This document shows positions 29,516 through 39,524 of a DNA stretch of 64,000 bases, in pieces; the first letter of the stretch is position 1, and each line of letters begins with the position of its first letter. The stretch covers positions 1 to 64,000 of the forward strand of contig NZ_BJXA01000021.1 in the NCBI RefSeq assembly GCF_007990755.1, in the 5' to 3' direction. The notes under the pieces are model-generated. The model worked only from the letters and a program-made list of their open reading frames with translations. It ran no database searches and was not told the DNA's origin. The position numbers were made by a program, and so were the translations under genes. Source of the stretch: Nocardia ninae NBRC 108245 (GTDB lineage: Bacteria > Actinomycetota > Actinomycetes > Mycobacteriales > Mycobacteriaceae).

Positions 29516-29589
29516 CGGGGTGTGGCGCAGCTTGGTAGCGCGCTTCGTTCGGGACGAAGAGGTCGCAGGTTCAAATCCTGTCACCCCGA
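29516..29589 (+). tRNA. tRNA-Pro (anticodon CGG)
   Basis: The 7-bp acceptor stem pairs 29516-29522 with 29582-29588 (CGGGGTG with CACCCCG). The anticodon loop TTCGGGA sits on a CTTCG/CGAAG stem, giving CGG, and the T arm GCAGGTTCAAATCCTGT is normal. CCA is not encoded. The 3' part from 29570 on is repeated at 39499, marking it as the integration site of the element on its right. The gene remains complete because the element restores its 3' end. Confidence 0.95.
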
Positions 29590-29595
29590 CTCGTG
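29570..29595. repeat. attL core
   Basis: This 26-bp stretch, starting in the T loop of tRNA-Pro and running 6 nt past the gene, is identical to 39499-39524. Confidence 0.9.
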
Positions 29596-29609
29596 TGGTT
29601 GAGACACGA

Positions 29610-29650
29610 GACGGCCCCAACCTGGTCATACAGGTTGGGGTCGTCTTTTT
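29610..29650 (+). terminator. Terminator after tRNA-Pro, inside the element
   Basis: A 15-bp stem (29610-29624 with 29631-29645, one G-T pair) is followed by TTTTT. It lies on the element side of attL, so the element supplies the terminator for the occupied tRNA. Confidence 0.75.
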
Positions 29651-29672
29651 GCCTCGCTCCGGTTTCGGGCGC

Positions 29673-29694
29673 GTGCCTAATCCGTGCCGAACGA
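29673..29694. repeat. Candidate integrase arm-type site, left end
   Basis: GTGCCTAATCCGTGCCGAAC plus GA matches 39361-39382 at 20 of 22 positions in the same orientation. Each copy contains TGCC twice, 11 bp apart. One copy near each attachment site fits integrase or excisionase arm binding. Confidence 0.6.
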
Positions 29695-29833
29695 ACTCCA
29701 GCTTGCAACCCAGCGCCAGCTGACTTCTGCTGCCTGAGTCGTGACCGCCGTCGACGGGATGAGCACGGCCGACTCGATCACGACTGAGCGAAAGCCATGT
29801 ACGTGGCGAACGCTCGGTCGTAGCGTGGGATAC

Positions 29834-30997
29834 ATGACTGTGGACAGCGGCGAACGGCTGAAGACCGCCCGGAAACGGGCGGGTATGACGCAGAAGGAAC
29901 TAGCTGCCAAGTCGGGTGTATCGCTATCTCAAGTCAAGAAGATTGAGGGCGGTACCTACAATCCTCGCCTAGAGACCTTACGAGCGTTCGCGGTCGCGAT
30001 GGGCATACGCACATCCAAGTTGCAGGTCCAGCCGGACTTCCAAGCACCCGACGCCGATACGGCCGCCCAGTGGTCCGCCGTGTGGCCTGCCCTGTCCGGC
30101 GTCGTCGCCCAACCCGACGAGCCTGCCACGACCGAAGGCGTACAGCGAGTTCTCGACAGCGTCCAGCGGATGATCAGCGCCGATCGGTACGCCGAAGTCA
30201 CTGCGCTGTTGCCGGACCTGGTCCGAGACGTCGACAGCCTGGAAGGTGCAGGTGCTCGCGCACTGAAGTTCCGGGTGTGGAACATGGTCGGCTCACTGCT
30301 GGCTCAGACTCGGCAGTTCGAGGCGGCCGACGAAATCCTGAATCGCGCGTTGGACATCGCGGACAATGGCGTTGAAGTCGCAACCGTCGTGGATACGAAT
30401 CTGTGGGCGGTGCTTCGGCAGGGCCGTCTTGAGGATGCCCGCAACATGGCCATCCGGACGGCCGACGACATCGAACCCCGCTTCAGCCGTGCGAGCGTTT
30501 CCACTGTCGCGATGTGGGGTCGGCTGTGGTTGAAGGTCGCGAACGCAGCGGTGCGAGACAATCAACCAACCGAGGCGGAAGACGCCATGTCCATGGCGCG
30601 GGCCGCCGCATACCGGATCGGTCGAGACATTTACGTCGAGCGGCTGCTCGGCCGCACGTTCGGTCCCCTCGAGGTTGGCTACATCACCGGCGAAATGCAT
30701 GTGATCGCAGGCGAACCAAGACTGACAATAGCCACAGCCAAGCAACTTCCGCCGCCGATGCTGGAACCCGCTGGGTCGAGCCGGATGCGGCACCGGCTGG
30801 ATCTTGCCAATGCCCATGTGCAGCTCGGGAACTACGGAGACGCCTTGCGGGAGATGCGTCGCGTACAACACACTGCGCCGGAATGGCTTGTACAGCAACG
30901 CTATTCGCGCGACATTCTTGGGACCATGATCAGTAAGCGTCGGTCGCTGACGCCGGAGATGCGAGAGATGGCCAGCGCGATTCGCCTGGACTACTAA
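29834..30997 (+). CDS. XRE-family regulator with helical C-terminal domain
   Basis: A 387-aa protein. Residues 8-62 are a Cro/CI-type HTH (RLKTARKRAGMTQKELAAKS, then GVSLSQVKKIEGG). The rest is helical and TPR-like, a layout common in actinobacterial element regulators that sense a peptide or small molecule. TAGCGT (29821-29826) lies 7 nt before ATG 29834, with no ribosome-binding site (leaderless). It is the first gene at the left end and probably controls the element or its cargo. A terminator hairpin follows it. Confidence 0.8.
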   Translation: MTVDSGERLKTARKRAGMTQKELAAKSGVSLSQVKKIEGGTYNPRLETLRAFAVAMGIRTSKLQVQPDFQAPDADTAAQWSAVWPALSGVVAQPDEPATTEGVQRVLDSVQRMISADRYAEVTALLPDLVRDVDSLEGAGARALKFRVWNMVGSLLAQTRQFEAADEILNRALDIADNGVEVATVVDTNLWAVLRQGRLEDARNMAIRTADDIEPRFSRASVSTVAMWGRLWLKVANAAVRDNQPTEAEDAMSMARAAAYRIGRDIYVERLLGRTFGPLEVGYITGEMHVIAGEPRLTIATAKQLPPPMLEPAGSSRMRHRLDLANAHVQLGNYGDALREMRRVQHTAPEWLVQQRYSRDILGTMISKRRSLTPEMREMASAIRLDY

Positions 30998-31007
30998 ACA
31001 TCCTACG

Positions 31008-31049
31008 AATGTCCCTTTCGGTCAACGGCGGCCGGAAGGGACATTGTTT
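31008..31049 (+). terminator. Terminator after the XRE gene
   Basis: AATGTCCCTT (31008-31017) pairs with AAGGGACATT (31036-31045), followed by GTTT. Confidence 0.75.
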
Positions 31050-31180
31050 GCCCTGGTAAAGCGGTGTGACCCTGGTTCAACAACCGGTGCAGTATGGCGC
31101 GATCCCGGCCCAATCGGGAGGGACCTACCGAGCGGCACCGCGAGAACATCCATTTCGATGTGAGCAGGGGGCCTAGGCCG

Positions 31181-37689: not shown

Positions 37690-37764
37690 TTGAAATCCTC
37701 TACTGGCGGAACCTGTCTAAACATCGGCTTCGGTTGCCCCAATGGGGCAACCGAGATTGCCGTG

Positions 37765-37959
37765 TCAGCGCATCGGCTTCATAAGGGTTTCCAACTCGTT
37801 CAGATCCACGCGAATGCTCCGGCAACCGGGAACGCGGTAGCCGGTGATGGTGCCATCGGAGATGCGGCGACGCATTGTGCGCACCGACGTGCCGGTGAAC
37901 TCGGCACCTTTCGTCAACGAAACGTAACGCGGGTACACACGCATATTGGCAGAGGTCAT
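37765..37959 (-). CDS. xis: Excisionase-like MerR-type HTH protein
   Basis: A 64-aa protein. YVSLTKGAEFTGTSVRTMRR, then RISDGTITGYRVPGCRSIRV, is a small winged helix of the DNA-binding excisionase family. It should bend DNA at the attachment sites and direct excision. It lies 257 nt from the integrase on the same strand. The gap contains no gene and may carry its binding sites. Confidence 0.85.
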   Translation of the reverse strand: MTSANMRVYPRYVSLTKGAEFTGTSVRTMRRRISDGTITGYRVPGCRSIRVDLNELETLMKPMR

Positions 37960-38182
37960 GGTGAGGTTGCCCTTCTACAACTGGAATCGCGCGAAGTCCT
38001 CACGCCATGACTCGAGCGGCCGTTGCGGCCGTGCTCTGGTGGCGACGATACCGGCCAGACAGGGACAGGCAAACTACTACCGCGCGCGATCTGCATCACA
38101 TATGCGGCTTGTGGGATATAACTCCGAACGTCGGGTTTCGGTCTCGACGTGACCAGCCACACGCCGACTTCTTGCCGGAGCC

Positions 38183-38203
38183 GTCAAAAAGCCCTGCGGG
38201 GTA
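38183..38203 (-). terminator. Short terminator after the integrase
   Basis: On the minus strand a short CCC-GCA-GGG stem is followed by CTTTTT, 15-30 nt after the integrase stop. Confidence 0.4.
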
Positions 38204-38216
38204 TCGGACACACCGT

Positions 38217-39356
38217 TCAGGCGGCCCACATGCGTTGTGCCATCTCGCGATTGCGCTGCGGGTTGCTGTGGACGTAGCGCTGGCTCATAGCGACGCTGGT
38301 GTGCCCCATGAACGCCATGTGCTCGGACAAGGTCGCGCCCTGCTGGGCGAACAGGGTGGCCGCCGAGTGCCGGAAATCGTGAAACCGCAGCTTCGGCATG
38401 TCGAGGGTGGCAGCGACCTTCTTCAACCACTTCCGGACCGTGTTCGCGTGCACCACTTCGCCGTCCTGATTGGGAAAGACCAGCCCGTCACGCCCGGATG
38501 CCGCATAGGTGGCGATGTGGGTTTTGATCTGCTGGTACAGCTCCGGGGGCAATGACACCGTGCGCAGGGCTGCCTTGGTCTTCGGGGAGTCGATGATGAC
38601 TTGCTTTTTGATCCGCGACACCGCCCGCGCCACCGTGACCGCGCAGTCTTCGGGGCTGAGCTTGAAATCCGAGCGCCGCAACGCAGTCACCTCACCCCAG
38701 CGCAGCCCGCCGAAGCCAGCGACCAGAACAAGCAGTCGCCACTGCTCGGGCATCAACGACGCGAACTGCCGAATCTGACTCGGCGACAACGTGATCGGTT
38801 CGACCTTGCGCGTCTTGACGCCCGCGCGCTTGATCCGGCACGGGTTCGACGGAATCAGCTCTTCATCGACAGCGTGATTCATGATCGTGCGCAACAGGCT
38901 GTAGGCGTTGGCATTGCGCGTCGGAAACGGCTCCAGCTTCGCAAACCACGTCCGCACCCGAGACAACTTCAACTCCGCCAACGGGATCTCACCCAACTCC
39001 GGCAGGATCACGTTTTTCAGGTAGCCCTTGTTGAGTGTGCGGGTCCGGGGCTTGTGCCGATTCACCGTCTCGTCATGCCACCGATTGCAGTACTTAGCGA
39101 CGGTCAACACACCCTCAGCTTGTTTGGCCGCCTCGGCCTGCTGCTTCTTCAACCGGTCGGCCGGTGGCGTCCACTCATCGAACTCGATGAGCTTCCGCTC
39201 CTGCGACAGCCACCCCATGCAGTCGTCCTTGGACTCCCACGTGCGCGGTCCGTAGTACTGCTGCCCATCCGGGCCGGTATAGCGAGCCTGCCACCGCCCC
39301 GACGGAAGTTGCCGGGGAGCGCCGAAGGACCGTTTCGCCTGCTTCGTCTGTGCCAC
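38217..39356 (-). CDS. int: Tyrosine integrase
   Basis: A 379-aa phage-type integrase. The N-terminal arm-binding domain (APRQLPSGRWQARYTGPDGQ) is followed by a SAM-like core-binding domain and a catalytic domain with R (GGLRWGEVTALR), K (in an RTVSLPPELYQQ-adjacent strand), H-x-x-R (FHDFRHSAATLF), H (MGHTSVAMSQRY) and nucleophile Tyr in QRYVHS. It recombines the element into the tRNA-Pro 3' end 140 nt away. GTG 39356 begins the homologous part. A longer frame to 39410 would add 18 residues, including the arm-site repeat. Confidence 0.93.
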   Translation of the reverse strand: MAQTKQAKRSFGAPRQLPSGRWQARYTGPDGQQYYGPRTWESKDDCMGWLSQERKLIEFDEWTPPADRLKKQQAEAAKQAEGVLTVAKYCNRWHDETVNRHKPRTRTLNKGYLKNVILPELGEIPLAELKLSRVRTWFAKLEPFPTRNANAYSLLRTIMNHAVDEELIPSNPCRIKRAGVKTRKVEPITLSPSQIRQFASLMPEQWRLLVLVAGFGGLRWGEVTALRRSDFKLSPEDCAVTVARAVSRIKKQVIIDSPKTKAALRTVSLPPELYQQIKTHIATYAASGRDGLVFPNQDGEVVHANTVRKWLKKVAATLDMPKLRFHDFRHSAATLFAQQGATLSEHMAFMGHTSVAMSQRYVHSNPQRNREMAQRMWAA

Positions 39357-39360
39357 GTAC

Positions 39361-39382
39361 GTGCCTAATCCTTGCCTAACGA
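39361..39382. repeat. Candidate integrase arm-type site, right end
   Basis: Direct repeat of 29673-29694 (20 of 22 positions), located immediately upstream of the integrase start. Integrase binding here could also control its own expression. Confidence 0.6.
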
Positions 39383-39498
39383 GGGTCCATTCCTGACCAC
39401 TTCTGTCCACCTAAGTCACTAGCTCTACCTCCATTCTACCAGGCAGACAACACTTTTCGTCTGGTGAGCAACCTGCCATGATCATTTTGGGAGGCAGT

Positions 39499-39524
39499 TT
39501 CAAATCCTGTCACCCCGACTCGTG
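39499..39524. repeat. attR core
   Basis: Identical over 26 bp to the tRNA-Pro 3' end and following 6 nt at 29570-29595. Only the T loop onward is present, so this copy is a tRNA remnant. Confidence 0.9.

What the first reader, a model, noticed from the sequence alone, without database searches (positions are those of the whole stretch)
29516..39524. Capsid-carrying integrative element without packaging or tail genes
Seen: 26-bp att repeats at the tRNA-Pro 3' end and about 40 kb further features absent; between them lie integrase, excisionase, a winged-helix replication-like protein, scaffold-like protein and an HK97 capsid in only ~10 kb. No terminase, portal, protease, tail or lysis gene is visible. 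Known: phiRv1/phiRv2 of M. tuberculosis and capsid-forming phage satellites have this size and logic. Inference: this may be a Nocardia satellite that builds its own capsid and borrows packaging and tails from a helper phage.
Basis: partly seen in the sequence, partly recalled or inferred. Interest (0 to 1): 0.85.

Follow-up and report, generated by a model that had tools for sequence, protein, structure and literature searches.

The report
Nocardia satellite carrying its own capsid
A 10-kb mobile DNA element in a Nocardia genome makes its own small virus shell but has no recognisable genes for filling the shell or adding a tail, so it most likely borrows those from a helper virus; relatives sit in many other actinobacteria.

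Summary
Window 29565-39524 is a 9,960-bp element in tRNA-Pro(CGG), flanked by a 31-nt repeat (26 nt exact), encoding integrase, excisionase, winged-helix replication protein, scaffold and HK97 capsid. No terminase, portal, protease, tail or lysis family matched its ORFs. Three relatives show the empty site. It is no dead remnant: two other Nocardia carry the same block in tRNA-Pro genes with the same att core, and the capsid is its most constrained gene there (dN/dS 0.07-0.09). Relatives occur across Actinomycetes; 31 repeat-bounded ones measure 7.4-10.5 kb, 11 Nocardia ones 9.45-10.30 kb. No placed terminase or portal hit lies inside them, though more distant Nocardia capsid elements carry both. 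Twelve deposited 'phages' of 10.9-11.1 kb carry related capsids; the six records whose annotation I read list no portal or large terminase. Best reading: a capsid-encoding satellite that borrows portal, packaging motor and tail. Helper dependence is inferred, not shown. Capsid-plus-integrase elements are already reported in Mycobacterium: a new variant of a known kind.

The parts
29516..29590 (+). tRNA-Pro(CGG), integration target
   Evidence: ARAGORN; Rfam tRNA 7e-13
29565..29595 (.). att repeat at tRNA 3' end
39494..39524 (.). distal att repeat
   Evidence: empty sites
29672..29694 (.). possible integrase arm-type site, repeated at 39360-39382 (91%)
   Evidence: direct repeat D5; role inferred
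29834..30997 (+). g01 XRE-type HTH + TPR regulator, likely repressor
   Evidence: phrog_5823 2.7e-92; role inferred
31094..32729 (+). g02-g06: small ORFs (31094-31672, 31665-31937, 31934-32161, 32158-32376, 32373-32729), variable cargo
   Evidence: no informative family; shared with C42 prophage-like locus
32812..33306 (+). g07 unknown, part of the same cassette
33332..34576 (+). g08 long-helix protein; D57...E70xK72 spacing resembles a PD-(D/E)XK nuclease (by eye)
   Evidence: alignment; low-confidence model (pLDDT 60)
34764..35063 (-). g09b, 99-aa ORF (GTG start) 4 nt after the capsid stop
   Evidence: hmm match after the capsid in L027/L047 and L028/L048, weak (E 0.01-1) in L051, L055, L057; no PHROG
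35068..35919 (-). g09 HK97-fold major capsid protein, 283 aa
   Evidence: dN/dS 0.071-0.085
35920..36086 (-). structured RNA leader of the capsid gene: 43-nt hairpin 35997-36039, CAGG-loop hairpin 35980-35993, 3' stem covering most of the SD
   Evidence: z -5.9 for 35920-36069; CAGG hairpins; no Rfam hit
36087..36599 (-). g10 head scaffold protein
   Evidence: phrog_4708 8.9e-6; family alignment
36637..36954 (-). g11, small protein of unmatched predicted fold, just upstream of the scaffold gene
   Evidence: alignment of 20; AF2 pLDDT 92.7; no fold match at E <= 0.001
36988..37689 (-). g12 winged-helix replication initiator-like protein
   Evidence: phrog_270 1.4e-11
37765..37959 (-). g13 excisionase-like HTH
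   Evidence: phrog_575 1.5e-5
38217..39410 (-). g14 tyrosine integrase
   Evidence: phrog_1 4.5e-63

Best explanation
A mobile phage satellite. SHOWN by sequence: it sits between att repeats in tRNA-Pro with empty sites in relatives, and its capsid gene is under strong purifying selection. It carries integrase, excisionase, replication protein, g11, scaffold and capsid but no recognisable large terminase, portal or tail. INFERRED: on derepression or phage infection it excises and replicates, then expresses g11, scaffold and capsid, with capsid translation set by its RNA leader. Scaffold and capsid build a small shell around a portal supplied by a helper siphophage. The helper's terminase fills the shell with one ~10-kb genome, and the helper's connectors and tail complete the particle.
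For: Att repeats and empty sites. Capsid dN/dS 0.071-0.085 among three Nocardia elements with the same att core. No stops inside any of the 26 capsid matches. Type-B TerL and portal models hit 0 of 51 genome-contig loci, some of them cut by contig ends; scaffold hits 42, integrase 35, g11 22 of the 51. phrog_2 and phrog_12 (33 genomes), phrog_9 and phrog_104 (30): all portal hits and the TerL hits up to about E 1e-10 lie outside the A-type elements, placed by contig and contig length. Narrow size: 11 Nocardia elements 9,454-10,297 bp, sd 284, with different cargo and att sites. Twelve deposited 10.87-11.08-kb 'phage' genomes match the capsid and 11 of them the scaffold; six annotations read list no portal or large terminase; the WillG capsid, a long branch, falls among the A-type capsids. 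Related elements carry single helper-type parts after the capsid: TerS (L064, L099), head-tail adaptor (L049), minor tail protein (L033, L034; L086 ambiguous). The window genome holds four loci with TerL and portal matches; one (C42) shares the g02-g08 cassette at 78-85% nt, another (C9) has a scaffold with a near-identical C-terminal segment.
Against: No excised circle, particle or helper was observed. G093 and G092, the other two carriers of the closest variant, show no strong TerL or portal match anywhere. The capsid half of the element (34577-39524) shares no exact match over 16 nt with the prophage stretches fetched, the same as host-flank controls, so no shared packaging site was found. 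Nine ORFs have no informative family and could hide a diverged function. An N.GQG scaffold tail also occurs in a Gordonia phage (one of three looked at), which weakens the C9 link. In the other Nocardia group (L033-L036) capsid dN/dS is 0.03-0.27, so the very low values hold for the closest copies only.
Confidence: 0.75

Rival explanations
1. Interference or defence island: capsid and scaffold are kept because they poison assembly of invading phages, and the element itself is not packaged.
For: Satellites can interfere with helpers (established knowledge); no packaging gene here; capsid conserved.
Against: Narrow genome size across hosts and complete ~11-kb phage records with a related capsid point to packaging. 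The capsid is unrelated by profile to those of resident prophages C9 and C60, so co-assembly with those is unlikely; C14 and C42 were not compared. PADLOC matched only the HTH part of g01 and, weakly (0.004), g12.
Confidence: 0.1
2. Small prophage in decay that has lost packaging and tail genes.
For: Only about 10 kb; phage-like integrase, capsid and scaffold.
Against: Open genes, capsid dN/dS 0.07-0.09 among the closest copies, recurring scaffold-capsid-integrase set in many genera, clean att sites.
Confidence: 0.04
3. Self-sufficient minimal virus whose portal and motor are too diverged to recognise among g02-g11.
For: Nine ORFs without informative family; g11 has an unmatched fold.
Against: The unknown proteins of the head operon are too small for a packaging ATPase or portal (g11 105 aa, g09b 99 aa; size judgement from established knowledge); the one long unknown (g08) was found in 2 of 31 elements.
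Confidence: 0.05
4. Integrative conjugative element (AICE) carrying a stray capsid.
For: Integrase, excisionase and replication protein at a tRNA gene are also AICE features (recalled).
Against: No FtsK/Tra-like transfer gene in Pfam or NCBIfam scans; the capsid is the most conserved gene among the closest copies.
Confidence: 0.03

Closest known systems
Candidate PICIs of Mycobacterium, said to correspond in slow growers to phiRv1/phiRv2 (PMC10654092; passages read)
   Same: Defined there as integration machinery plus a major capsid gene, some with scaffold and terminase genes; some at tRNA att sites. Our capsid profile also finds Mycobacterium members (M. gordonae, M. aurum and others).
   Different: The passages read report no actinobacteria-wide scaffold+capsid class of constant size, no g11 and no RNA leader. 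phiRv sequences were not compared here.
Capsid-forming PICIs (cfPICI), as described in PMC10690885 and PMC11389934 (passages)
   Same: Own capsid, no tail, integrase; the distant Nocardia elements with TerL-portal-scaffold-capsid fit better.
   Different: cfPICI encode portal, connectors and both terminase subunits; this element has none recognisable.
Mycolicibacterium aichiense 'phages' WillG, Anya and ten others, 10.9-11.1 kb (GenBank OR387110-OR387121)
   Same: Related capsid (12 of 12) and scaffold (11 of 12), similar genome size, integrase; no portal or large terminase in the six annotations read.
   Different: Serine integrase, small terminase, head-tail adaptor and stopper, tape measure; WillG has no CAGG-loop leader. 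No paper on them found.
MulchRoom/MiniFlayer satellites of Streptomyces phages (PMC10690885, passages)
   Same: Actinobacterial satellites with their own small capsids.
   Different: They encode terminase subunits and portal, and parasitise virulent phages.

Membership tests
Candidate PICI sensu PMC10654092 | Integration machinery plus major capsid gene in one phage-like region | tested here: met
cfPICI | Own major capsid protein | tested here: met
cfPICI | Own portal protein | tested here: not met
   phrog_12 and phrog_104 find none on the window contig C21; no portal family in the ORF scans
cfPICI | Own large and small terminase subunits | tested here: not met
   PF03354, phrog_2 and phrog_9 find none on C21; PHROG scans of the ORFs. 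A diverged small subunit cannot be excluded
cfPICI | No tail genes; tails from helper | tested here: inconclusive
   No tail family found; tail origin not testable here
Phage satellite (general) | Helper-dependent packaging and transfer | not testable with these tools
   needs culture
Phage satellite (general) | Integrates at a defined att site; empty sites exist | tested here: met
phiRv1/phiRv2 | Sequence relationship of capsid and gene order | not tested
   not fetched; link rests on PMC10654092
AICE | FtsK/Tra-type transfer protein | tested here: not met

The most novel reading that the evidence does not exclude
A phylum-wide class of 'shell-only' satellites that supply scaffold and capsid but take portal, motor and tail from helpers, and that control shell production with a new regulatory RNA: a leader before the capsid gene holding one to three hairpins with a conserved CAGG loop on varying stems, bound by a protein (perhaps g11, scaffold or capsid) that gates capsid translation, much as coat-protein operators do in RNA phages.
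Probability: 0.35. Interest if true: 0.82.

Novelty: new variant of a known kind. Interest (0 to 1): 0.63.

Why it matters
The capsid-encoding satellites described in the papers I read bring portal and terminase with the shell. A class with scaffold and capsid only would mean a shell built around a foreign portal, which makes portal recruitment and capsid size control testable in a ~10-kb system. It also offers a mechanism for the capsid-bearing elements reported in mycobacteria. The capsid leader looks like an undescribed RNA element, and g11 is a well-predicted fold without a match in the two structure libraries searched.

Tried and rejected
Shared packaging site with resident prophages: in the capsid half (34577-39524) the longest exact match to the fetched stretches of C14, C60, C9 and C42 was 16 nt, as in the host-flank control (16 and 15 nt). 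In the whole element the long matches (33-88 nt) lie in the g03-g08 cassette and in C42 (top four per stretch shown). g11 against phages by tblastn: only weak hits, E about 0.1 or worse; against BFVD and PDB by fold: no match at E <= 0.001. The g08 model was too poor for a fold search. RNAalifold on 20 leaders gave only the 4-pair GCCC/GGGC hairpin. A longer helix next to the capsid start was tested by partner swapping: 28 of 40 leaders had the 5' motif, mean best helix 7.18 against 5.89 (sd 0.21, max 6.81 of 500) for mismatched partners (L033 and L075 have identical leaders and both counted). The window's own leader does not have it (best helix 4), so I do not claim it for the window. Leaders L029 and L030 fold no better than shuffles. 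A link of CAGG hairpins with g11 was not evident when I set beside by eye.

Size statistics: I kept 31 non-redundant A-type loci. Left out: L046, L066, L083 and L089 (no repeat) and L068, L080, L094 and L095 (repeats of 14-18 nt only, spans 10.3-11.7 kb). L050, L063, L064, L082, L084 and L087 were kept with 15-18 nt repeats; with repeats >= 23 nt only, 25 remain (mean 9,505, sd 713). Leaders: left out L050, L053 and L098 (gaps over 330 nt), L071, L073 and L076 (gaps of 44-46 nt), L075 (same as L033), loci without a scaffold match, and all type-B loci.

TerL and portal placement: contig lengths were checked for 20 hit contigs. Hits share a contig with an A-type capsid for G199 (weak), G206 (two contigs), G211, G212 and G216; the nearest are a portal fragment about 13 kb outside the L058 element and a TerL/portal pair about 25 kb outside the L087 element. 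Weak phrog_2 hits (E 1e-6 to 1e-3) on other contigs were not all placed. L077 was not held and not searched.
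Full report
WHAT IS THERE. ARAGORN finds tRNA-Pro(CGG) at 29516-29590. A 31-nt repeat (one mismatch, 26 nt exact) joins its 3' end, 29565-29595, to 39494-39524. The 9,960 bp they span have lower GC than the flanks. On the minus strand from the distal end lie a tyrosine integrase, an excisionase-like HTH protein, a winged-helix replication protein, g11, a scaffold, an HK97 capsid and a 99-aa ORF (g09b). On the plus strand lie an XRE/TPR regulator and seven ORFs (g02-g08). 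No terminase, portal, protease, tail or lysis family matched any ORF submitted. ORFs g02-g08, g09b and g11 match no informative family.

INSERTION. The downstream flank (39525-40918) was sought in 119 genomes, the window's own included: 18 matched. In G058, G008 and G040 the upstream gene, an identical 80-nt tRNA stretch and the downstream flank are contiguous, which is an empty site; G065 (L123) shows the tRNA and the rest of the flank but not its first 59 nt.

NOT A REMNANT. The capsid was sought in 198 genomes, the window's own included: 23 matched, 26 places, none with stops inside the matched stretch, some of them partial. For the three pairs capsid dN/dS is 0.071, 0.080 and 0.085, against 0.30-0.44 for scaffold, 0.21-0.26 for g11 and 0.19-0.20 for integrase. 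In the second Nocardia group (L033-L036) capsid dN/dS is 0.03-0.27 and scaffold 0.28-0.50.

A FAMILY. A capsid profile found 51 loci in genome contigs (Nocardia, Mycobacterium, Mycolicibacterium, Rhodococcus, Blastococcus, Geodermatophilus, Actinomyces, Corynebacterium, Arthrobacter, Nesterenkonia, Streptomyces and others) and 5 in viral contigs. Of the 51, scaffold is matched in 42, integrase in 35, g11 in 22, and the type-B terminase and portal models in none; several loci are cut by contig ends, and the six Streptomyces loci lack a recognisable integrase nearby. Among 31 non-redundant repeat-bounded elements, the models applied to called genes found the capsid in 31, scaffold in 28, integrase in 27 and g11 (two variants) in 15 (the simple gene caller misses some). 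Span is 7,384-10,517 bp, median 9,577; the 11 Nocardia elements span 9,454-10,297 bp, sd 284, with different tRNA targets and cargo. A packaging limit is the simplest explanation (inference). Dropped loci and the built-in 6-14 kb search range are told under Tried and rejected.

A SECOND ARCHITECTURE. More distant capsid elements in Nocardia (L040, L043, L044, with L041 and L042) and in other genera of the order (L045, L038) carry TerL-portal-scaffold-capsid, in about 9.5-10.8 kb where att repeats were found. These look cfPICI-like. In the capsid tree the TerL-free and TerL-bearing labels need three changes, fewer than any of 500 shuffles; six of eight TerL-bearing rows form one branch, and 52 TerL-free rows form another (99/92) that includes the M. 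aichiense isolate WillG on a long branch. L046 (TerL-free by the models, long branch) groups with the former, and L095 with a TerL-bearing viral contig.

PACKAGING GENES ELSEWHERE. Whole-genome searches: PF03354 over 18 genomes, phrog_2 and phrog_12 over 33, phrog_9 and phrog_104 over 30. All portal hits, and TerL hits up to about E 1e-10, lie outside the A-type elements, by contig handle or contig length; weak phrog_2 hits were not all placed. The window genome has TerL plus portal at C14, C60, C9 and C42. G093 and G092 have no phrog_9, phrog_12 or phrog_104 hit and only weak phrog_2 hits (E 3e-4 and worse), so those strains seem to lack a resident helper.

CONTACT WITH RESIDENT PROPHAGES. 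The C42 prophage-like locus carries g02-g08 at 85% over 1,751 nt and 78% over 1,265 nt: satellite and prophage have exchanged a cassette or acquired it from one source. The C9 scaffold shares VARH-x-NYGQG with the satellite scaffold, while the C9 and C60 capsids do not resemble the satellite capsid by profile. A shared partner such as the portal would explain that, but an N.GQG tail also occurs in the scaffold of Gordonia phage Yvonnetastic (one of three phages looked at), so this is a lead only.

PRECEDENT. The only phage records matching the capsid (E <= 0.001) are 12 Mycolicibacterium aichiense isolates of 10,866-11,078 bp; 11 of them match the scaffold too. I read six annotations: each lists a terminase of 96-134 aa (in WillG phrog_1496, small subunit), head-tail adaptor and stopper, serine integrase, capsid and tape measure, and none a portal or large terminase. 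Our TerL and portal models find none in WillG, and its 161-aa ORF matches our scaffold model (6e-21). I found no paper on them.

HELPER-TYPE SLOT. Other A-type elements carry, after the capsid, a minor tail protein (L033, L034; phrog_110), a small terminase (L064 1.2e-9, L099 4.8e-16), a head-tail adaptor (L049 1.7e-12) or a protein matching both a minor tail and a small terminase family (L086); of ten such proteins scanned, five matched no PHROG and one an unknown family. In the window element this place holds g09b, unknown.

RNA LEADER. The scaffold-capsid gap is long (about 110-230 nt in most A-type loci). In the window it folds at z = -5.9: a 43-nt hairpin (35997-36039), a GCCC[CAGGUC]GGGC hairpin (35980-35993) and a stem covering most of the Shine-Dalgarno sequence. 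Of 13 leaders folded, 9 reached z <= -3, one of these (L034) identical to L033; WillG gave -3.0, L055 -2.3, L029 -1.2 and L030 +0.2. CAGG-loop hairpins number 42 in 39 leaders against 4.1 +/- 2.0 in shuffles (max 10 of 200); 24 of 39 leaders have at least one, some three with different stems. With stems >= 4 they are 20 times denser in leaders than in the rest of the same 29 elements (27 in 4,734 nt against 76 in 268,271 nt, one strand); of 11 control leaders (four prophages, six type-B loci, WillG) only L042 has one. The motif was noticed in these same sequences and the elements are related, so the figures overstate independence. Rfam has no match above its gathering score in the window element, apart from the tRNA, or in ten loci. 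Likely role: translational control of the capsid (inference).

G11. An alignment of 20 sequences gives a confident model (pLDDT 92.7, pTM 0.83) with no Foldseek match at E <= 0.001 in BFVD or PDB. L050, L052 and L098 have a Cys/His-rich N-terminus like a zinc finger (by eye).

VERDICT. Capsid-encoding satellite, very likely mobile, that must obtain portal, motor and tail elsewhere. Helper dependence, excision and particles remain to be shown. The general kind is known from Mycobacterium (PMC10654092, passages); the breadth, size constancy, leader RNA and g11 appear new within what I searched (paper searches; listings and passages only).

Noticed in passing
window 35920-36086 (-), and 24 of 39 leaders examined: Structured RNA leader of the capsid gene with recurring CAGG-loop hairpins; no Rfam match in the loci searched.
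   Followed up: partly
window 36637-36954 (-): g11: signature small protein of the family with a confident predicted fold without a library match; zinc-finger-like N-terminus in some members.
   Followed up: partly
L137:74-3482 (G000:C42:21074-24482) vs window 31155-34576: g02-g08 cassette shared between the satellite and a prophage-like locus of the same genome.
   Followed up: yes
window 33332-34576: g08 N-terminal part has D...ExK spacing and predicted helix/strand order like a PD-(D/E)XK nuclease, followed by long helices; 414 aa, function unknown.
   Followed up: partly
L040, L043, L044, L045, L041, L042, L038: Compact ~10-kb cfPICI-like elements with TerL, portal, scaffold and capsid in Nocardia and other genera of the order.
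   Followed up: partly
L033:10293-11939, L034:8319-9923: Satellites carrying a minor tail protein (phrog_110) directly after the capsid gene: a possible tail-tip takeover.
   Followed up: no
L100: Viral contig with two related capsid elements (about 81% identical over the shared pieces) in tandem.
   Followed up: no
L102: Viral contig with identical 123-nt ends, i.e. probably a circular ~10.2-kb TerL-bearing capsid element.
   Followed up: no
L039 (G084): Relatives of g02, g03, g05, g07 and g08 in the same 20-kb stretch as a short capsid-like ORF that matches only the capsid C-terminus.
   Followed up: no
OR387110-OR387121: Twelve M. aichiense 'phages' of 11 kb deposited as complete phages look like helper-dependent satellites.
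   Followed up: partly
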